A stretch of DNA of 64,000 nt. Origin: Accumulibacter sp. GTDB taxonomy: Bacteria; Pseudomonadota; Gammaproteobacteria; Burkholderiales; Rhodocyclaceae. Under the pieces are notes generated by a model. That model worked only from the letters and a program-made list of their open reading frames with translations. It did not search any database and was not told the origin of the DNA. Shown one piece after another: positions 6,892 through 23,336 of this stretch. The position numbers and the translations under genes were made by a program. The DNA is taken from the NCBI RefSeq assembly GCF_029255285.1, contig NZ_JAPUVI010000088.1, positions 20,429-84,428 on the forward strand. The letters are read 5' to 3'. The stretch's first letter is position 1. Every line of letters begins with the position of its first letter.

Positions 6892-9414
6892 TCAGGGAGG
6901 CGCCTGGCCAGCCATGGCGGGAACCTCGCGCTTTTCCGTTTCCCGCCGATACCGCTCGAGGATGCGCGCCTGCTCGGCCTGCAGGCGATGCCAGGCCTGC
7001 GCCAGCAGAGGCGTTCGCGTCTGGCCGATGCGCTGCGGTGCCTCACGCGCCACTTCGTTCTGTGCCGCCACCCAGCGCCGTCCTGCCGGCGTCCGGAACA
7101 GTTTCAAGGCGGCGTCCATGTCGCGCTCGGCCAGTTTTTCCCGCCACAGGTCGCGGTACACCTCACGTAAGGACGCTTCGCTGTGCACGCTGGCGCACAG
7201 CCCTTCGGCGTAGCGCTCGTAGGCCGCGACCAGCTCGACCCAATGCGGCGAGTCCGGGCCGAGTCCGCCGAAGTAGTCGGGTTGCGACTTGATCAGTTGC
7301 CCTGGCGAAACCAGACTCATCTCGTGCAGGCATTGGCGGCCCAACTGCCGGGCCTGATCGGGAACGGCCAGCAGGCTGAGCAACTCGTCGTACTTGCCGC
7401 CGGCCATGGCCGGCGGCTTGGCCTGCGCCGCCGCCGGCTGGGCTGATGCGCTCTGCCGTGCCAGGGCAAAGGCCGCGAGCGGGTGCCGGATGGCTTCGCC
7501 AACGAAGAGGCGTGGATTCGATTCCGGGAAATCTTCTCGGATCTCGCGCGCGGCGATGGCCGGCCTCGCTCTTTCGAAGGCTTCGACGAACGAATAGGTC
7601 TGGCGCAACGCCTGGTCGAAATAGGCTTTGCCGAAATAGGTGAAATCGGCCTCGTTGCTGCAGCCGAAGGAGTTCCTGTCGGCTGCGGCCGCGGTGATCA
7701 CCAGCGTGTTGTCGTCCTGCAGGGCGTCGACGAAGCCGCCCGCATAGCAGGCCGAGATAACCACGACGCGGCGCTTGATCCCCGATTCGTCGAGCAGTTC
7801 GCGCAGGCGTCGGGGATCGAGGGTGTTGAAACGCATGGGCCAGAAATCGAGCACGAACTTGTGATCCGGCGAGCCGTGCGAGGTGAGGAAAAGGAACAGG
7901 ATGTCCTCGTCGGGATTCATGATCGCGCCGATCCGCCGCAGCGTCAGACCCAGGCTGGTGACACTGGCGATCGGCGATTCGGCGACGCTCTGCGGATTGT
8001 TGATCAGCAGCACCGAACGTCCCTCGGTGGCGAAGCGTTCGCGGAACAGCTCGGCCACCGAGCGAACTTCCTTCATGAAGACGTCCTGCCGGGAATAACC
8101 CGCCGCGCCGACGAAATACAGATCGGTGACCCCCGGCCGCCCTGGCTGGAGGGCGGCAAGTTTGCGTTCGAGCAGTCGTGGTTGCAGATAGAAAGTGTCT
8201 TCGGCGACCAGCGACAGATATTTCCGCTCGAAGTCGCCGCTCGCCTCCTCGTCGTGCGCCTCGATCCACAGCGAACGCTCGTGGTATACGACGCTTGGCG
8301 GCACACCGAGGAGCAATCCGGCCGCGGCGGCGATCGCCAGGCGGCGGCTGGCGTGCGGCCTGAGAAAACGGATCGCCGCACCGGCAAAGGCCAGAGCCAC
8401 CCACCATGGCGGCAGGTAATGAATGGCCGGGCGCCATTCCCTGGGCAGAAAATCGATCGCTTCACCGGTCGCGTGGAAAAGGAGCAGATAGAGCGCCTCG
8501 ACTGCCACCTGCACGGCGGCGAGCATGGTCAGCAGCGCCAGCGTCCGCCGCTGACGTCCGGCCAGGCAGGCGACACCCCAGGCGGCGACGAGCATCATCG
8601 GCACGTGGAACAAGGCGCCGGGCAATCCTTCCTCGGAAAACACTCCGCGCGAGCCGACACGCAGCAGCGCCTCGACGACCGGCAGGGCGACGCCGAGCGC
8701 CGTCAGGGCGATGAACTGCGACCACGACGCCGACGGACGGCGCGACGGCAAGGGAAGGAACACGGCCAGACGCAGCCCCAAGCGCAGATGCCGGAGGAAA
8801 GCGTGCCACGCGCCAGGCCTGCCGCTTGACCCGCCGCCGGCCACGGCCGGGTCGCGCGGCGCGTTGCTGGGCTTCTCGGTTGGCACCGGCGCGCTGGCGA
8901 TTCGTTCCCGCAGCCGCGCCAGGAAATCGGCCAACTCGGCAGGCGACGCGAAGGCGCTTTCCGGGACCGGGATGAAGCTGACCTCGTCGAGGTAGATCAG
9001 GACATGCCCACAGGCGGTTTCGAGCGAGCGGATCGCCGGCCAGGCAACGAAGCTCGTGCCGTCGGCGCTTGCCCAGTGCAGGCCGTCGTCCTTGGTTTCC
9101 AGGACACGTGGCCCGCGGACGAGACAGCTTCCTTCGGCGAGGCGGCGCAAGATGCCATTCTGAAAGCCTAGCTGCTGAACGCCAAGCAGAACGATCCCGC
9201 CAAGCAGCGCCGGAGCCAGCCACTTCCCATCGCCGCCGCTCAGCCAGGCTTCGCTGAGCAGCCAACCGATGGCCGCACAGACCAGTATCACGGTCACCTG
9301 ATGTGCTGCCCGCTGTGTCCATGACGATCGCTGGCGCATCAGGCGCTGCTGGTTGAATTTCAAGAGCGCCGCATACTGATCGGCGCCGAGTTGGTAGGCT
9401 AGGGTGGTCGGCAT
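6892..9414 (-). CDS. multi-domain membrane protein: YcxB-like region, C13 (legumain-type) peptidase, DUF2059-like tail
   Basis: I place the start at ATG 9414 (GAGGA ahead of it; first residues MPTTLAYQLGAD), giving 840 residues. Order of parts: (1) residues 1-170, two close membrane helices and a segment like YcxB proteins (LETKDDGLHWAS, then SLETACGHVLIYLD and ESAF); (2) about 240-420, a group of five hydrophobic helices; (3) about 440-650, a caspase-fold peptidase of family C13 with the catalytic His in LTSHGSPDHK (about 513) and Cys in ISACYAGG (about 555), the 42-residue spacing seen in legumain; (4) about 680-815, a helical region resembling DUF2059. The peptidase part probably faces the periplasm. 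It stands alone, convergent with the YihY gene. Domain calls are by eye; the DUF2059 assignment is the least certain. Confidence 0.85.
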   Translation of the reverse strand: MPTTLAYQLGADQYAALLKFNQQRLMRQRSSWTQRAAHQVTVILVCAAIGWLLSEAWLSGGDGKWLAPALLGGIVLLGVQQLGFQNGILRRLAEGSCLVRGPRVLETKDDGLHWASADGTSFVAWPAIRSLETACGHVLIYLDEVSFIPVPESAFASPAELADFLARLRERIASAPVPTEKPSNAPRDPAVAGGGSSGRPGAWHAFLRHLRLGLRLAVFLPLPSRRPSASWSQFIALTALGVALPVVEALLRVGSRGVFSEEGLPGALFHVPMMLVAAWGVACLAGRQRRTLALLTMLAAVQVAVEALYLLLFHATGEAIDFLPREWRPAIHYLPPWWVALAFAGAAIRFLRPHASRRLAIAAAAGLLLGVPPSVVYHERSLWIEAHDEEASGDFERKYLSLVAEDTFYLQPRLLERKLAALQPGRPGVTDLYFVGAAGYSRQDVFMKEVRSVAELFRERFATEGRSVLLINNPQSVAESPIASVTSLGLTLRRIGAIMNPDEDILFLFLTSHGSPDHKFVLDFWPMRFNTLDPRRLRELLDESGIKRRVVVISACYAGGFVDALQDDNTLVITAAAADRNSFGCSNEADFTYFGKAYFDQALRQTYSFVEAFERARPAIAAREIREDFPESNPRLFVGEAIRHPLAAFALARQSASAQPAAAQAKPPAMAGGKYDELLSLLAVPDQARQLGRQCLHEMSLVSPGQLIKSQPDYFGGLGPDSPHWVELVAAYERYAEGLCASVHSEASLREVYRDLWREKLAERDMDAALKLFRTPAGRRWVAAQNEVAREAPQRIGQTRTPLLAQAWHRLQAEQARILERYRRETEKREVPAMAGQAPP

Positions 9415-14783: not shown

Positions 14784-17278
<2,495 letters not shown>

Positions 17279-17282
<4 letters not shown>

Positions 17283-17545
17283 GGTGACTTCCGATCTTTG
17301 TCGTGGATCAGTGACGACGCTCCGAGGGAACGGGCTTGGCGCAGGCGGGGGAGGAGGCGCGGTGTCACACGCGCGTAGCGTTCGAATGCTTCGCCGAACC
17401 GCGCATGCATGGCGGCTTCCTCCGCCGACGCCAGCCGGCCATGCCTTACCCGCAGGAGCGGGAACATCGCCCGCGTCAGCCGGGCGTGGCGCGAACGCCA
17501 GAAGGGCGGTCGGGAGTCGGCGGTCGGCCCGTGTACGTGGCGCAT
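17279..17545 (-). pseudogene. 5'-truncated isoprenylcysteine-methyltransferase-like (ICMT/PEMT) gene remnant
   Basis: From about 17467 down to 17330 the frame reads [20 protein letters not shown] followed by [20 protein letters not shown], the C-terminal signature of ICMT/PEMT-type membrane methyltransferases (hydrophobic helix, RLA.xEE, FGE.Y..Y, P..PRL). The four membrane helices and SAM-binding part that should precede it are missing; the frame instead runs into unrelated sequence just after the DUF411 gene. Genes of this family are often found in heavy-metal clusters. The remnant is still open, and its stop overlaps the ATPase start, so it could survive as a translated leader for the pump. 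Confidence 0.5.
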
Positions 17546-17581
17546 GGCGTGGCTGCGGAATGGGGTGGGCGTCGTCGCCGG

Positions 17582-18067
17582 TCAGCGGTGCGACTGATAG
17601 ACCGTGCGGCTGCCGTCGGTACCGATCAGCAGAACGTCGTAAGCATCCCGACGCCCGCCGTACGCCGGGCCATCCATGCCCGGCGACCCGACCGGCATGC
17701 CCGGCGCCGCCAGGCCGACGGCACGCGGGGCTTCGCTGAGCAGGCGCCGGATGTCCGCGGCGGGAACGTGGCCTTCGATGGCGTAGCCGCCGATCTGCGC
17801 CGTATGACAAGAACCAACCTGGCGCGGCATGCCCAGACGATCCCGGGCGGCGGTATTGCCGGTGTCGAAGACCTGCACGGCAAAACCGGCGCTCTTCAAA
17901 TGAGCGATCCAGTCGGCGCAGCATCCGCAGTTGGGGTCCTTCCACACTTTCGCGGCCGGACTGGTTTGCGCCATGCCGGGTCCGCCGAGCGACATCATCA
18001 GCAGACCGGCGATCAACGTGGAGAACCTGGACGATTTGGCTGGCGGCCAGTGTTGATAGTGTTTCAT
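17582..18067 (-). CDS. DUF411 metal-binding protein
   Basis: A 161-residue exported protein: signal peptide in residues 1-33 ([17 protein letters not shown]), then the DUF411 domain with its thioredoxin-like opening [17 protein letters not shown] (C47, C49, C50), [19 protein letters not shown] with conserved Cys and His (about residues 85-103), and [16 protein letters not shown] near the end. DUF411 proteins are regularly encoded in copper-resistance clusters and are believed to bind metal in the periplasm; exact role unknown. Good ribosome-binding site (AAAGG). It sits between copB and the P-type ATPase, 40 bases after copB. Confidence 0.92.
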
Positions 18068-18107
18068 TGGATACCTTTATGATCAGAATCGATGCTTGCA
18101 GGAATGA

Positions 18108-19082
18108 CTAGAACCAGAATCGCAGGCCGGCCAGCCAGCGCGTCTGCTGTGTGCGGTCGCCTTCGGCGCGTAGCTGGCGCGCGGTTTCTCCGAAGCTGCC
18201 CGCCCGTTCTACGCCGATGTAAGGGGCGAACTGGCGACTGAACTCGTAGCGCAGGCGCAGACCGACGGACGCTTCGGCGAGGCCGCGGCCGATGCCCCGC
18301 TCCGGGTCGTCCTTGCCGAAGAACTGCAGTTCGGTACGGGGCTCCAGAATCAGGCGCTGGGTGAGCAACAGTTCGTAGCTTGCCTTCAGGAGCAGGGCGC
18401 TCCGGCCGGCGCTGCCGACATAGGCCGTGGCCTCCACTTCGAACCAGTAGGGCGCCAGGCCCTGCACGCCGAAGGCCAGCCACTGGCGGCCCGGGCCTTC
18501 GCCGCTGTCCAGGCGAACTCCCAACTGCGTGTCCCAATACGGCGCGATGGCGTGCCCCCAGAGCAACTCCGTGCGCGCGTCTTCGAGTTTCCCTCGCCCG
18601 ATGTCGCCCTCGGCCTTGACGACGGCACGGTCAAACGTGGTGCCGACCCAGCCCTGCAGGTCGTACGCCGTGGAGTCGTCGCCGTTACGCGTAAAGCGGC
18701 GTTCGAAGGTTTCCGCGCGCAGCGAGGCGAAAAAATGTTCGTCGGCCAAAGTCAGGCGAGGAACGCCGGGCACGGCGTAATCGCCAGCGCCCAGTTGCTG
18801 GCCGTTGGCGTAGGCATGGGGGTCGCGCGCATCGGCCGGTGGCGGCCCGCCCGGCATCCGCATGTCGCCGTGATCCATCGCCGGTGGTGCCGCCGCGTCG
18901 CTTGCCGAGGCGGCCGGCGCCGCCTGGGCATCGGCGGCATCGGTCTTCGGCGCGGCGGCCGGGGCCGCCGGCCGGGGGTCGGTCTGAGCATGCGCCGCAT
19001 GGTCGTTCTGCGCCTGCGCGGCAAGGCTCGCCAGCGCCAGGAGGGCGGTGCTCAGTGCTCGGGCGGTGAGTGCTGCGAACAT
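18108..19082 (-). CDS. copB: outer-membrane copper resistance protein CopB
   Basis: A 324-residue protein with a signal peptide (residues 1-24, ending AAQAQ), a His/Met/Ala/Pro-rich linker (about 25-85, with NDHAAHAQ and MDHGDMRMPGG as probable copper ligands) and a C-terminal beta-barrel (about 105-324) with the CopB landmarks FERRFTRNGDDS, EDARTELLWGHAIAPYWD and the terminal aromatic RFWF typical of barrel insertion. It acts with CopA to sequester or pass copper across the outer membrane. It follows copA by 25 bases. Confidence 0.93.
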   Translation of the reverse strand: MFAALTARALSTALLALASLAAQAQNDHAAHAQTDPRPAAPAAAPKTDAADAQAAPAASASDAAAPPAMDHGDMRMPGGPPPADARDPHAYANGQQLGAGDYAVPGVPRLTLADEHFFASLRAETFERRFTRNGDDSTAYDLQGWVGTTFDRAVVKAEGDIGRGKLEDARTELLWGHAIAPYWDTQLGVRLDSGEGPGRQWLAFGVQGLAPYWFEVEATAYVGSAGRSALLLKASYELLLTQRLILEPRTELQFFGKDDPERGIGRGLAEASVGLRLRYEFSRQFAPYIGVERAGSFGETARQLRAEGDRTQQTRWLAGLRFWF

Positions 19083-19107
19083 TTTCGATCTTCCATTTGC
19101 GCTGAAT

Positions 19108-20940
19108 TCACGACACCACGACTTCGCGGAACATGCCGGCGTCCATGTGGAACAGTAGATGACAGTGCCAGGCCCAGCGTCCGAGCGCGTCGGCCGTCAC
19201 GAGAAAGCTGATGCGTTGCGCGGGCTGCACCGGCAAGGTATGGCGGCGGGCGAGGAAACGCCCGTCCGGGCTTTCCATCTCGCTCCACAGGCCATGCAGG
19301 TGCATGGGATGAGTCATCATGGTGTCGTTGTGCAGGATGACCCGCAGACGCTCGCCATGACGAAAATGCACCGGTGTGGATTGGCCGAATTCCAGTCCGT
19401 CCAGCGACCAGGAGTAACGTTCCATGTTGCCCGTCAGGTGCAGTTCGACTTCCCGGCCGGGGCCGCGCGAGTCGATCGGACCCGATGGCGTGTGCAGGTC
19501 GGCCAGCGTCAGCACGCGCCGTCTGTTGTTGCGCAGGCCGACGCCAGGGTCGTCGAGGTTGGTGCGTGCCATGTCGACCCGCATGTCCGTACTCGCCCCG
19601 TACTCCGTGCGCGCATGGCGCGCGATGGTGCTGGGGACGGCCAGTCCGCCTGCCGCCGCGGCGTGCTGGCGGTGATCCAGCGCCATGCCGCCGTGTTTCG
19701 GACGGCCCATCGACCCATGGTCCATCCCGCCCATGCCGCTCATGCCCGCCATCGCGCTGCCCTGGTTCGCCGCGCCATGGCTCATGCTGCCCATCATGTC
19801 GCTCATGTCCAGCCACTCGACCGGGTCGAGTGCCGGCACGGCCGGCGACAGACCTTCGCGCACCGCCAGCGTGGCGCGTGCGTATCCCGTCCGCTCCATC
19901 GACTGCGCGAAGATCGCATAGGCATCGTCGCGCGGCTCGACGATGACATCGACGGTTTCGCCGGGGCCGAAGCGAAACTCATCGACGGTCACGGGCTCCG
20001 TATCCACGCCGTCGACATGCACCACGGCAAGCTTCAGGCCGGGAATGCGCACGTCGTAGAAAGTGTTGCCCGCGCCGTTGATCATGCGCAGCCGTACCCG
20101 CTCCCCGGGGCGGAACAATGCCGTCCAGTTGCCAGCCGGAGTGACGCCGTTGGCGAGATAGGTCAGCGTTGCCGACGACAGATCGGCCAGATCCGTCGGA
20201 TTCATCCGCATCTCGTTCCACATCTGGCGCTTGTCGATCGCGGCGACCAGGCCGTCTCGCGCGGCATCGCGAAAGAAATCGATCACCGTGGGCTGGTGGT
20301 AGTTGTAGTAATCGCTCTGCGCCTTGAGTTTGGCGAAAACACGCATCGGATCTTCGTCAGTCCAGTCCGAGAACAGCAGCACGTGCTCGCGATCGGCCCG
20401 AATGGTCTCGGGCCCGGCGGGATCGACGACGATCGCGCCGTACATGCCCTTGAGTTCATGGAAGCCGGAGTGGGAGTGGTACCAGTAGGTGCCACTTTGC
20501 TGCAACTTGAAGCGGTAGACGAACGTTTCGCCGGGCGCGATGCCGTTGAAGCTGATGCCCGGAACGCCGTCCATCTGAAACGGCAAGAGGATGCCGTGCC
20601 AGTGGATGGAGGCGGTCTCGCGCAAGTGGTTGGTGACGCGGAGGGTGACGGTCTCTCCCTCGCGCCAGCGCAAGGTCGGCGCCGGCAGCGAACCGTTGAT
20701 CGTGATCGCCATTCCGGGTTGACCCGTGAAGTTCACCGGTGACTCGGCGATCAGCAGATCGAATTCATTGCCTCGCAGAACCGGAGGGCTTTCATTGGCC
20801 GTCGGGGCCTGCTGGGCGAACGCCCTCGAGGCCGGCGTCGATAGGCCGGCCAGGACGCCGCCGGCGGCCAGGCCTTGAACAAAACGCCGGCGAGACAAGT
20901 CGAGCGATGGGGCAACAAGAATGGGCGAACGGCTCGGCAT
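19108..20940 (-). CDS. copA: copper resistance multicopper oxidase CopA (PcoA-type)
   Basis: A 610-residue periplasmic multicopper oxidase exported by the Tat system (SRRRFVQGLAAGGVLAGL, residues 16-33). All copper ligand motifs are present: HWHGILLPFQMDGVPG (about residue 118), WYHSHSGFHELKGMYG (about 158), HPMHLHGLWSE (about 550) and WHCHLLFHMDAGMFREV near the C-terminus. A Met/His-rich block (MSDMMGSMSHG... MAGMSGMGGMDHG, about 378-425) is typical of CopA/PcoA and binds Cu(I). It oxidises or sequesters copper in the periplasm and heads the copA-copB-DUF411-ATPase-copC-copD cluster. No copRS two-component genes lie in the window. Confidence 0.95.
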   Translation of the reverse strand: MPSRSPILVAPSLDLSRRRFVQGLAAGGVLAGLSTPASRAFAQQAPTANESPPVLRGNEFDLLIAESPVNFTGQPGMAITINGSLPAPTLRWREGETVTLRVTNHLRETASIHWHGILLPFQMDGVPGISFNGIAPGETFVYRFKLQQSGTYWYHSHSGFHELKGMYGAIVVDPAGPETIRADREHVLLFSDWTDEDPMRVFAKLKAQSDYYNYHQPTVIDFFRDAARDGLVAAIDKRQMWNEMRMNPTDLADLSSATLTYLANGVTPAGNWTALFRPGERVRLRMINGAGNTFYDVRIPGLKLAVVHVDGVDTEPVTVDEFRFGPGETVDVIVEPRDDAYAIFAQSMERTGYARATLAVREGLSPAVPALDPVEWLDMSDMMGSMSHGAANQGSAMAGMSGMGGMDHGSMGRPKHGGMALDHRQHAAAAGGLAVPSTIARHARTEYGASTDMRVDMARTNLDDPGVGLRNNRRRVLTLADLHTPSGPIDSRGPGREVELHLTGNMERYSWSLDGLEFGQSTPVHFRHGERLRVILHNDTMMTHPMHLHGLWSEMESPDGRFLARRHTLPVQPAQRISFLVTADALGRWAWHCHLLFHMDAGMFREVVVS

Positions 20941-21084: not shown

Positions 21085-21206
21085 CTTGGTGACCAGCGGC
21101 GACCAGGGAATCGCCTCCAGGCCGCCTGCCTCTGCGGCGCCGAAATCGGTGGATAATTGCTTGCCGGCGAGACTGACGCGGCCGGCGCATCGTCGGGGGC
21201 AGTCAA

Positions 21207-22481
21207 ATGGCAGCTAATGTGGCAGCAGAGTACGACGTCTTCCTCTCCCATCGTTCGCCGGACAAGCCGATGGTCGAACGCCTCGCCGAGAAGCTCGTCG
21301 AGGAGGCGCGGCTCAGCCCGTTCCTCGACCGCTGGCACCTGATCCCGGGGGAGCCCTGGCAGGAGAGCCTCGAGCAGGCACTCAACCGGAGCCGCTGCGT
21401 GGCCGTCTTCGTCGGACCGAGTGGCGTCAGCTCCTGGGAAAACGAGGAAATGCGGGCGGCGCTGAGCCGGCGGGTGCAGGAGCACGCCTTTCGCGTCATT
21501 CCGGTCCTCCTGCCGGGCGCCGACCAGGAGGCGAAGGACAAGCTGCCGACTTTCCTGCTGCGCTTCACCTGGGTCGATTTCAGTTCCGGCATCGACGATC
21601 CGGTCGCCTTTTCGCGGCTCGTCGCCGGCATTCGCGGACAGGCGCCGGGACGCTCCGGCGTGCAGAAGCTGTCCGCCGCCTCGCCGTACGTTCGCCAGAG
21701 CGTGCGCGACATCATGGCCGACGTGCTGCGCCAGACGGGCATCGATCTGGCGTCACTGCCGCTCGGCGTCGGCGCGACGATCAGGACGATCATCCGCCGC
21801 TGCCAGCTTCAGTACCCGGATTTGCCGCCCGAAGAGGTGGCGCGTCAGGTGAGCGCCGGCCGCGCCGCGGCCTACGAGAAAAAGTACGCGCAGCGCAGCC
21901 AGAAGGAAGACGAGCGCTATCGCGCCTTCGAGGAGTGGGAGTCCGAACTGAACGCGCTCTTGCGGCATCTCGGCCTGCGCGACCTTGCCCGTTGCCGGGC
22001 GATCAACGTGGGCCTCGGCAACGGCCTCGAGAAGCCGTACTTTTACAAGGACTTCAAACAGTTGGTCGGGGTCGACCTGTCGGCCAAGGCACTCGCCAGC
22101 GCAGCGCAGGAAATCGTCAGGCTCGAGACGCACCAGGCCGAGGCCGAAGAGCTGCAAGGCGTGGCCAGCCATGCCTTCGACCTCTATCTGTCGCTGCGTA
22201 CCTATCAGTCGAGCTTCTTCGATATCGGCGAAGCGCTTTTCGCGGCCTGCCGCGTCCTCGATGACGGTGGCCGCGCGGTGATCTCGATACCTTACGTCTA
22301 TGTCGACCAGGGGCGACTGCTCAACGGCCTGCTGCGGCCGGGCGGGCACGACCTCGATCCCGATCTGCCCTACGAAATCGCCGACGCGGTCCGTCGCGGG
22401 CTGCAGACGCTTGGTTTCGAACAACTCGGGATGCACACCGGACTGTTCGAGATCTACGTCTACGGAACGAAGACGAGCTAG
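21207..22481 (+). CDS. TIR domain fused to a class I SAM-dependent methyltransferase domain
   Basis: A 424-residue cytoplasmic protein. Residues about 8-145 are a TIR domain: opening strand YDVFLSHRSPDK, LIPGEPWQESLEQALNRSR, VAVFVGPSGVSSWENEEM. The WxxE in the last segment supplies the glutamate used by NAD-cleaving TIR enzymes. A helical, charged linker follows (about 150-255, with IRTIIRRCQLQYPDLPPEEV). The C-terminal part (about 260-424) has the class I methyltransferase pattern: glycine loop INVGLGNGLEK, acidic strand end LVGVDLSAKAL, FDLYLSLRTYQS as the post-II strand, and LDDGGRAVISIP. TIR proteins serve in bacterial anti-phage defence or as secreted effectors; with no signal peptide, an intracellular role is likelier. 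Good GGGGG ribosome-binding site. The next gene starts 49 bases on. Confidence 0.85.
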   Translation: MAANVAAEYDVFLSHRSPDKPMVERLAEKLVEEARLSPFLDRWHLIPGEPWQESLEQALNRSRCVAVFVGPSGVSSWENEEMRAALSRRVQEHAFRVIPVLLPGADQEAKDKLPTFLLRFTWVDFSSGIDDPVAFSRLVAGIRGQAPGRSGVQKLSAASPYVRQSVRDIMADVLRQTGIDLASLPLGVGATIRTIIRRCQLQYPDLPPEEVARQVSAGRAAAYEKKYAQRSQKEDERYRAFEEWESELNALLRHLGLRDLARCRAINVGLGNGLEKPYFYKDFKQLVGVDLSAKALASAAQEIVRLETHQAEAEELQGVASHAFDLYLSLRTYQSSFFDIGEALFAACRVLDDGGRAVISIPYVYVDQGRLLNGLLRPGGHDLDPDLPYEIADAVRRGLQTLGFEQLGMHTGLFEIYVYGTKTS

Positions 22482-22530
22482 CGCGCCGTCGGCGCCCGCG
22501 CGATCCATTATCCCTTGACCGGAGGCACAC

Positions 22531-23121
22531 ATGGCCGATCCCCTTGGTGTCAAAGCCATCGCCAGACTTCCCGTGCTCGACTACCAGCAGGTGCGCGAGC
22601 AGCTGCGGACCGGCGACCTCGTCTTCTGCTCGGGCACCTATTTCTTCTCGCGCACCATCCAGTGGTTCACGAAGTCCGTCTGGAGCCACATCGGCATCAT
22701 CTATCGCGACGACAGTCTGCAGCGAATCTTCGTTCTCGAGAGCGAGACCGGGATCGGCGTTCGCCTCGCGCCCCTGTCCAAGTATCTCTCCAACTACCAC
22801 GGCCGCAACAAGCCCTACAAGGGGCGCATCGTCATCGGCCGGCTGACGCCGCAGCCGGCCGAGGAGCAGCTCAAGCAGGCGATCAGTTTCGGCATGGACG
22901 AACTGACCCGGCCCTACGACAACCGGGAGATCCTGCGTATCGCGATGCGCATTCTCTTCCGGCGTGGCGGCAAGAACCGCAATCGCAAGTACATCTGCTC
23001 GGAACTGGTCTACGAGGCGTTTCGCAAGGCCCAGATCGGCTTCAAGTTCCACCGCGACTCGATCAGCCCGGACGACATCTGGAAAGACGAGCGCGTGCTG
23101 ATGCAGTTCCGGATCATGTGA
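22531..23121 (+). CDS. permuted NlpC/P60-like (YiiX/DUF830-type) cysteine hydrolase
   Basis: A 196-residue protein without signal peptide. The catalytic set has the circularly permuted order of YiiX/YebB proteins: His53 in WSHIGIIYRD near the N-terminus, an acidic partner in LESETG (about 70-72) and Cys156 in YICSELVYEAF near the C-terminus; RTGDLVFCSG (about 26-35) is the family's opening strand. Such enzymes cleave amide or acyl bonds in peptidoglycan, lipids or proteins; the substrate here is unknown. A strong GGAGG ribosome-binding site and the short gap after the TIR-methyltransferase gene suggest one transcript. The 215 bases after it (23122-23336) hold only GC-rich inverted repeats near 23123-23155. 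Confidence 0.85.
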   Translation: MADPLGVKAIARLPVLDYQQVREQLRTGDLVFCSGTYFFSRTIQWFTKSVWSHIGIIYRDDSLQRIFVLESETGIGVRLAPLSKYLSNYHGRNKPYKGRIVIGRLTPQPAEEQLKQAISFGMDELTRPYDNREILRIAMRILFRRGGKNRNRKYICSELVYEAFRKAQIGFKFHRDSISPDDIWKDERVLMQFRIM

Positions 23122-23336
23122 CGGCGCGCCGCGCGTCGAAGCGCCGGCGCGTGTTTGACTATGGCCGGCGAATCTTGGCAAAGTACGCGAACCCGCGGCC
23201 GGCGCTAGGAAGTGGCGGCGCCTGAAGCGCGAGGACTTCCCGTGCAGCAGGTGACGCGAGCCGGGTGGAGTGGTTGATCGATCGGCGCCGCGCGGGATCG
23301 CGTCGCTCTCTTTGGACCAAGGAGCTTGCACAATCT

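What the first reader, a model, noticed from the sequence alone, without database searches (positions are those of the whole stretch)
21207..23121. TIR-methyltransferase fusion paired with a permuted NlpC/P60-like hydrolase
The sequence shows a TIR domain (YDVFLSHRS, WENEE with the glutamate expected for NAD cleavage) joined to a class I SAM-methyltransferase-like domain, with a YiiX-type cysteine hydrolase 49 bases downstream behind a strong ribosome-binding site. TIR domains in bacteria commonly deplete NAD or make signalling nucleotides in anti-phage systems. I know of no described system built as TIR plus SAM-binding domain plus permuted NlpC/P60. One reading: the SAM-binding half senses or modifies something, the TIR half is the toxin, and the hydrolase is a second effector. 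That reading is inference.
Basis: partly seen in the sequence, partly recalled or inferred. Interest (0 to 1): 0.8.

Follow-up and report, generated by a model that had tools for sequence, protein, structure and literature searches.

The report
TIR–methyltransferase fusion in Accumulibacter
A wastewater bacterium carries a rare protein that joins a TIR domain of the NAD-cleaving type to a SAM-binding methyltransferase, an arrangement not found in the family libraries and papers searched, and the hydrolase gene beside it is mostly an independent neighbour rather than a fixed partner.

Summary
Gene 1 (21207-22481) encodes TIR + helical linker + class I methyltransferase. Gene 2 (22531-23121) encodes a permuted NlpC/P60 (C92) hydrolase with its four catalytic residues kept.

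The three-part 'system' is not supported. In Ca. Accumulibacter the fusion is intact in 6 of 28 genomes; the hydrolase lies beside it in 2 of those 6, both sharing one junction. Of 12 genus genomes in the hydrolase scan, 6 have that gene, and in 5 of them it stands away from the fusion; one carries both genes on different contigs.

What is unusual is the fusion. Its TIR half keeps WxxxE and resembles TIRs otherwise joined to STAND ATPases or SIR2. Its linker-methyltransferase half was found elsewhere only in five Streptomyces plasmids, after a deaminase-like domain and beside uracil-glycosylase, deoxyribosyltransferase-like and ketosynthase genes. Best reading: a single-gene, defence-like NAD-cleaving effector controlled by a SAM-binding module. 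Boldest reading not excluded: the methyltransferase acts on the TIR product. No activity was tested; the structure model was poor.

The parts
21130..21206 (+). leader that goes with the fusion gene in four of the six loci; contains a conserved block around GGATAAT (-10-like)
   Evidence: homology to L011, L012 and L013 begins at 21130-21137 and aligns across these four loci; the simple sigma-70 scan found no promoter-like site; homology to L014 and L037 begins only at 21230-21231
21207..22481 (+). TIR-linker-methyltransferase fusion gene, 424 aa
   Evidence: intact in 6 of 28 genus genomes
21231..21656 (+). TIR domain (residues 9-150), WxxxE motif W77/E81
   Evidence: PF13676 E=4.7e-26; AbTIR alignment; dN/dS 0.065-0.160 against the window copy
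21657..21869 (+). helical linker module (residues 151-221), no known family, fastest evolving part
   Evidence: no Pfam match for the window piece; helices at 166-175, 192-202 and 208-227 in the low-confidence model; dN/dS 0.260-0.487
21870..22478 (+). class I SAM-methyltransferase domain (222-424); motif I NVGLGNG 267-273, D290, DLYLSLRTYQSSFFD 325-339
   Evidence: PF08241 E=2.4e-10; motif positions; YcgJ alignment; motifs shared with Streptomyces relatives
22518..22530 (+). ribosome-binding site region of the hydrolase gene (GGAGG, five bases before ATG)
   Evidence: sequence
22531..23121 (+). C92 permuted NlpC/P60 hydrolase gene, 196 aa; H53, E70, Y129, C156. Adjacent, probably an independent accessory gene
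   Evidence: copies away from any fusion in five genus genomes

Best explanation
Gene 1 is a single-gene, defence-like effector. The TIR half (inferred NAD+ hydrolase or cyclase through E81) is held in check by, and activated through, its C-terminal linker-methyltransferase half, which binds SAM and reads an infection- or stress-related change (SAM/SAH state or a methyl-acceptor ligand). This is analogous to related TIRs whose C-terminal module is a STAND ATPase with repeats, or SIR2. Shown by sequence: the domain make-up, the intact TIR and SAM motifs, purifying selection on both halves, patchy occurrence in the genus, and the modular family background. Inferred: NAD cleavage, autoinhibition, the SAM-linked trigger and the anti-phage role. 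The C92 hydrolase is an independent accessory gene, probably lipid- or acyl-directed (inferred from its family), that became adjacent at one junction now seen in two genomes.
For: TIR_2 and Methyltransf_11 above Pfam cut-offs. WxxxE aligned with AbTIR and kept in all six intact copies (for five, for G607). TIR relatives fused to nSTAND1-WD40, NB-ARC-TPR, a guanylate-kinase-like domain, AAA_16/nSTAND1 and SIR2. Of 21 TIR places in 16 of 28 genus genomes, 6 are the methyltransferase fusion, 7 carry the TIR-SIR2 sequence, 4 an ATPase-type C-terminus, 1 an unassigned C-terminus, and 3 were not classified. Patchy: 6 of 28 intact plus one decayed remnant. Different neighbourhoods within the flanks fetched. 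Two of the six copies lie near defence-type genes: a type I-G CRISPR-Cas locus with array (G230), and in G607 a PDC-S62-matching gene next upstream plus capP/RmrA- and HTH-matching genes about 3 kb off. Purifying selection on TIR and methyltransferase, faster linker.
Against: No activity was measured. None of ten window neighbours matched a defence model, nor did the three genes tested beside the L011 and L012 copies; the single L014 gene matched only mad2 weakly, probably generic. There was no matched control for the frequency of defence neighbours. The methyltransferase motifs kept down to 27-28% identity may mean real catalysis rather than sensing. The relatives of the linker-methyltransferase half lie in biosynthesis-like Streptomyces operons, not recognisable defence loci. 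Short shared blocks are not special in this genus: a neighbour gene of the L011 copy also shares only a 1.4-kb block with another genome, so shuffled flanks do not by themselves show a mobile defence cassette.
Confidence: 0.42

Rival explanations
1. Sequential bifunctional enzyme: the TIR half splits a nucleotide (NAD+ or a relative) and the fused methyltransferase methylates a product (nicotinamide, or an ADP-ribose or base derivative), making either a methyl-capped signal or an unsalvageable product.
For: The only other relatives found of the linker-methyltransferase half follow a deaminase-like domain and lie beside uracil-DNA-glycosylase and nucleoside-deoxyribosyltransferase-like genes, that is, base- and glycosidic-bond chemistry. 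NVGxGxGxE, D290 and LRTYxSxxFD are invariant in all 11 aligned sequences.
Against: No match to the nicotinamide N-methyltransferase family, and no substrate-specific methyltransferase model above its cut-off. The Streptomyces link is 27-28% identity over this half, the deaminase-like match is below the Pfam cut-off, and those operons also hold AMP-binding and ketosynthase genes, so the substrate could be an acyl or natural-product intermediate.
Confidence: 0.17
2. The methyltransferase is the effector or biosynthetic enzyme and the TIR half only assembles or regulates it (scaffold TIR).
For: The methyltransferase is strongly conserved (dN/dS 0.079-0.228), and in Streptomyces the same half is joined to another N-terminal domain instead of TIR.
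Against: TIR is the most constrained part (dN/dS 0.065-0.160) and keeps WxxxE in all six intact Accumulibacter copies.
Confidence: 0.15
3. Ordinary accessory metabolism or natural-product gene in a polyphosphate-accumulating bacterium, not defence.
For: Window neighbours are an M48 peptidase and, by eye, copper-resistance and efflux-type genes, without defence matches. The distant relatives lie in biosynthesis-like operons.
Against: The six copies share no pathway genes beside the fusion within the flanks fetched. TIR family background is conflict-type.
Confidence: 0.13
4. One reading: TIR toxin, SAM sensor and C92 hydrolase as a second effector of one operon.
For: In two genomes (window and G602/L011) the genes are adjacent, co-directional and share one homologous 2-kb block (21130-23130) in otherwise unrelated surroundings. 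The hydrolase keeps its catalytic residues.
Against: Adjacent in 2 of 6 fusion copies. The hydrolase stands away from any fusion in five genomes, one of which has the fusion on another contig, and no hydrolase match at E<=1e-10 was found in a genome that has the fusion (G079).
Confidence: 0.08

Closest known systems
TIR-STAND (NLR-like) proteins, TIR_2 + nSTAND1/NB-ARC + WD40/TPR
   Same: N-terminal TIR about 60% identical over the domain in L015 and L016, with the same PGEPWQE and WENEE stretches
   Different: no NTPase or repeat sensor here; the C-terminal half is a linker plus methyltransferase
TIR-SIR2 proteins of the same genus
   Same: TIR at the N-terminus, patchy in Accumulibacter
   Different: C-terminal SIR2_2 instead of methyltransferase
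Bacterial TIR NADases such as AbTIR (PDB 8g83)
   Same: TIR profile match and WxxxE
   Different: no methyltransferase partner known to me (recalled); activity of the window protein untested
Thoeris and retron-TIR
   Same: weak TIR-domain similarity only
   Different: NCBIfam scores far below cut-offs; no Thoeris or retron match among the ten neighbours tested
Streptomyces deaminase-like-methyltransferase proteins (e.g. WP_331752314.1)
   Same: linker and methyltransferase halves align, 27-28% identical, sharing NVGxGxGxE and LRTYxSxxFD
   Different: N-terminus is deaminase-like (PF00383 E=0.0008-0.005 where found, below cut-off); conserved biosynthesis-like operon
BcPPNE/YiiX permuted NlpC/P60 hydrolases (Peptidase C92, PDB 3kw0)
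   Same: gene 2 aligns over 180 residues with the catalytic residues kept
   Different: substrate unknown; the published proposal for BcPPNE and YiiX is a lipid-amino acid amide bond (PMC3142127, passages)

Membership tests
TIR_2 domain (PF13676) | profile score above curated cut-off | tested here: met
   92.1 bits against 28
TIR NADase | WxxxE glutamate | tested here: met
   W77/E81 aligned with AbTIR; W77 and E81 invariant in nine aligned TIRs; WENEE also in G607
TIR NADase | cleavage of NAD+ | not testable with these tools
   no wet assay
Class I SAM methyltransferase | profile score above cut-off and SAM-binding motif I | tested here: met
   PF08241 41.4 bits against 21.2; NVGLGNG at 267-273; aligns with YcgJ 1xxl
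Class I SAM methyltransferase | Rossmann fold in a confident structure model | tested here: inconclusive
   pLDDT 52.9; order of strands and helices compatible only
Peptidase C92 (permuted NlpC/P60) | profile above cut-off; His before Cys order; Glu and Tyr kept | tested here: met
   50.7 bits against 27; H53, E70, Y129, C156 (reference residues from PMC3142127)
STAND/NLR-type TIR receptor | NTPase domain after TIR | tested here: not met
   no NTPase family in the Pfam scan of gene 1
Thoeris | ThsB-type family score and ThsA partner | tested here: not met
   Thoeris models only weak (23.3 bits against 220; E about 0.005 or worse for ThsB models over short stretches); no ThsA match in ten neighbours
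Fixed TIR-methyltransferase / C92 two-gene system | conserved adjacency | tested here: not met
   2 of 6 fusion copies

The most novel reading that the evidence does not exclude
A two-step TIR enzyme: TIR cleaves NAD+ (or a related nucleotide) and the fused methyltransferase methylates the released base or ribosyl product. That would give a methylated TIR-derived signal, or an irreversible NAD+ and SAM drain that salvage cannot undo. The same methyltransferase module would be used on base chemistry in Streptomyces.
Probability: 0.15. Interest if true: 0.8.

Novelty: new variant of a known kind. Interest (0 to 1): 0.45.

Why it matters
TIR proteins are usually classified by what triggers them and what they make. 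A TIR joined to a SAM-binding enzyme would tie NAD+ chemistry to the methyl-donor pool. Phages are known to attack SAM and to counter NAD+ depletion (recalled, not looked up here), so either a SAM-state trigger or a methylated TIR product would be a new mechanism. It is a single gene of about 1.3 kb from a wastewater bacterium and easy to test in a laboratory strain.

Tried and rejected
Structure: AlphaFold on the five-sequence alignment gave pLDDT 52.9, so no fold search was run on it. Linker identity: no Pfam match for the window piece; in the ten-member set only scattered hits, best HU-CCDC81_bac_2 E=0.027 (3 of 10 members), and a NADAR chain at E=0.82 in one PDB list; both treated as chance. 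The similarity of the methyltransferase to Mad2 (E=7.3e-7) was rejected as generic, since another methyltransferase-like neighbour gene also hits Mad2 (E=0.00048). Wider occurrence: the linker-methyltransferase profile was found only in the window genome among 299 phylum genomes and 399 order genomes; among 398 phylum genomes there was the window genome plus one weak partial hit, G393 E=9.4e-11, not followed. In these scans only the first 6 to 8 candidates per genome were scored. No relative of that half in viral contigs, none of the whole protein in phage records. Of 11 plasmid records matching the whole protein, 5 match the methyltransferase half and 6 the TIR half only; none has both. Insertion signs: no exact shared direct or inverted repeat of 10 or more bases in the stretches compared at the block ends of L011, and none of 9 or more for the window, L012 or L013. 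Empty site: sought with a gene beside the L011 copy and not found. The window's own downstream neighbour, M48, has only 44-49% identical matches elsewhere in the genus, so it gave no empty site either.

Full report
The observation. Gene 1 has TIR_2 (E=4.7e-26, residues 11-139) and Methyltransf_11 (E=2.4e-10, residues 267-359), both above Pfam cut-offs; gene 2 has Peptidase_C92 (E=2.7e-13). The window lies in a 4.19-Mb, 113-contig genome whose close relatives by gene 1 are named Accumulibacter.

Catalytic residues. A TIR profile of nine sequences finds AbTIR and other TIRs in the PDB, and WENEE aligns so that W77 and E81 match the W and E of the AbTIR stretch; that this E is the AbTIR catalytic glutamate is recalled. 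WENEE is kept in all six intact copies (for five, for G607). The methyltransferase half keeps motif I (267-273) and D290 and aligns with YcgJ. Gene 2 aligns with BcPPNE (3kw0) at E=9.4e-26; the residues given as catalytic in PMC3142127 (Cys154, His49, Glu64, Tyr127; passages read) correspond to C156, H53, E70 and Y129, and the seven copies printed keep them. The structure prediction of gene 1 was poor (pLDDT 52.9), so the fold of the methyltransferase and linker is supported by profiles only.

Distribution of the fusion. Intact copies are in 6 of 28 genus genomes: G000 (window), G079, G230, G602, G603, G607. G259 has a decayed remnant lacking most of the TIR part. In the family, 297 genomes gave 7 with matches at E<=1e-20: three full-length fusions, the G259 remnant, and three TIR-only matches. 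A scan of the species-genome collection with strict peptide patterns returned 10 loci: four full-length Accumulibacter fusions and six TIR-only relatives. Profiles of the linker-methyltransferase half found only the window genome in 299 and 399 genomes, and the window genome plus one weak partial hit in 398. These samples overlap. So the module is rare in Pseudomonadota, but distant relatives in other phyla were sampled only through the plasmid, phage and viral collections.

Is it a pair? The C92 gene was found in 8 of 297 family genomes at E<=1e-10, six of them among the 12 genus genomes drawn. In those six it adjoins the fusion only in the window; G602, not drawn there, is the second adjacent case. 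In G230 the two genes are on different contigs; in G079 the fusion is present and no C92 match was found. G603 and G607 were checked for C92 only in their flanks (about 1.6 kb upstream and 7 kb downstream for G603; about 5 kb each side for G607); the G230 fusion has about 1 kb of upstream sequence. DNA homology to the window ends near gene limits: the fusion block runs from 21135-21137 to 22483-22488 in L013 and L012; the C92 block from 22505-22531 to 23124-23151 in five genomes; the joint block 21130-23130 is seen only in L011/G602, in otherwise unrelated surroundings. So the junction is shared by two genomes and may have moved as a unit once. Against reading too much into block limits: a neighbour gene of the L011 copy also shares just a 1.4-kb block with another genome.

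Selection. Pairwise dN/dS of the window copy against five others: TIR 0.065-0.160, linker 0.260-0.487, methyltransferase 0.079-0.228 (simple counting method, synonymous distance near 1 for G607). All parts are constrained; the linker changes fastest.

Family background of the TIR half. Relatives over the TIR domain are fused to nSTAND1-WD40 (L015), NB-ARC-TPR (L016) and a guanylate-kinase-like domain (L018). In the genus, 21 TIR places in 16 of 28 genomes comprise 6 fusions, 7 with the TIR-SIR2 sequence (Pfam-tested in two of them, L072 and the G210 copy as L007), 4 with ATPase-type C-termini (Pfam-tested in three), 1 with an unassigned C-terminus (L071) and 3 that my script did not classify. 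This modular background is why I read the C-terminal half as the likely control module; it is inference. Published comparative work read in passages only (PMC7159879; PMC8195603) treats TIR as a NAD-cleaving effector or signal-making domain in such systems.

Family background of the methyltransferase half. Five of 72,556 plasmid records, all Streptomyces, carry a protein whose last 270 or so residues align with it (27-28% identity). Invariant in all 11 aligned sequences are NVGxGxGxE, D290 and LRTYxSxxFD. Their N-terminus is deaminase-like: PF00383 at E=0.0008-0.005 in 3 of 4 N-terminal pieces tested, in one of two whole proteins, never above the cut-off. By eye it lacks the HAE and PCxxC zinc motifs (motifs recalled). 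In all five the next gene is annotated as uracil-DNA-glycosylase family (PF03167 found in the one tested). The gene after that is annotated as nucleoside 2-deoxyribosyltransferase in 2 of 5 and hypothetical in 3; PF05014 was found in both tested, one just below the cut-off. AMP-binding and ketosynthase genes follow in all five. PMC7159879 (passage) describes DRHyd and SLOG domains as evolutionarily related to TIR; that DRHyd takes in the deoxyribosyltransferases is recalled. This is the ground for the two-step reading: the module keeps company with base- and glycosidic-bond chemistry. The operons also look biosynthetic, so an acyl or natural-product substrate is as possible.

Defence context. 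Ten window neighbours: no PADLOC match at E<=0.001. Ten further genes were chosen from the neighbourhoods of the other five copies. In G230 (three genes) the fusion is about 1.1 kb from a CRISPR array (3469-4593 of L044) beside Cas8g, Cas3g and Cas56g. In G607 (three genes) the nearest upstream gene, 100-220 bases away depending on the start codon of the fusion, matches PDC-S62 (E=2.6e-66, best over its N-terminal part), and two genes about 3 kb off match capP/RmrA (E=1.3e-15 at best) and an HTH model (E=4.5e-08), which may be generic. The two L011 genes and the one L012 gene have no match; the one L014 gene hits only Mad2 weakly. So 2 of 6 copies have defence-type neighbours in a partial survey, without a matched control.

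Literature. Searches for TIR with methyltransferase or SAM in defence settings showed no described TIR-methyltransferase fusion (listings, plus passages of PMC8195603, PMC7159879 and, from the Accumulibacter search, PMC10907252). The library lacks most subscription papers and all bioRxiv preprints. For gene 2, the published proposal for its structural relatives is cleavage of a lipid-amino acid amide (PMC3142127, passages), and a permuted NlpC/P60 effector outside the YiiX clade is a phospholipase (PMC12994826, passages).

Verdict. The domain reading is right, the two-gene system is not supported as a rule, and the fusion itself is a rare variant of modular TIR proteins. Most likely it is an NAD-cleaving effector governed by a SAM-binding module (0.42); a two-step enzyme is the boldest reading left open (0.15).

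Noticed in passing
L061:12001-20041 and the matching regions of L030, L031, L060, L062: Conserved Streptomyces plasmid operon: deaminase-like-methyltransferase fusion, uracil-DNA-glycosylase family protein, deoxyribosyltransferase-like protein, AMP-binding and ketosynthase genes; looks like a biosynthetic cluster built around base chemistry. I did not search the literature for it.
   Followed up: partly
L072:370-1959 and L007:1507-3051: TIR-SIR2_2 fusion proteins, recurrent in Accumulibacter (7 places by sequence).
   Followed up: partly
L018:6986-8098: TIR fused to a guanylate-kinase-like domain in a Rhodospirillales genome.
   Followed up: no
L044:3469-9316: Type I-G CRISPR-Cas genes and array about 1.1 kb from the fusion gene in G230.
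   Followed up: partly
L038:3035-3211 and 7234-7821: G186 has a full C92 gene and, about 4 kb away, a truncated second copy of its start.
   Followed up: no
L043:4968-5821: Decayed remnant of the fusion gene in G259, most of the TIR part missing and the frame broken.
   Followed up: no
L037:6454-8223: Gene with N-terminal matches to PDC-S62 and DpdE next upstream of the G607 fusion, same strand.
   Followed up: no
window 14784-20940: Copper-resistance-type gene cluster (P-type ATPase, multicopper oxidase and neighbours, named by eye) on the minus strand next to the fusion gene.
   Followed up: no
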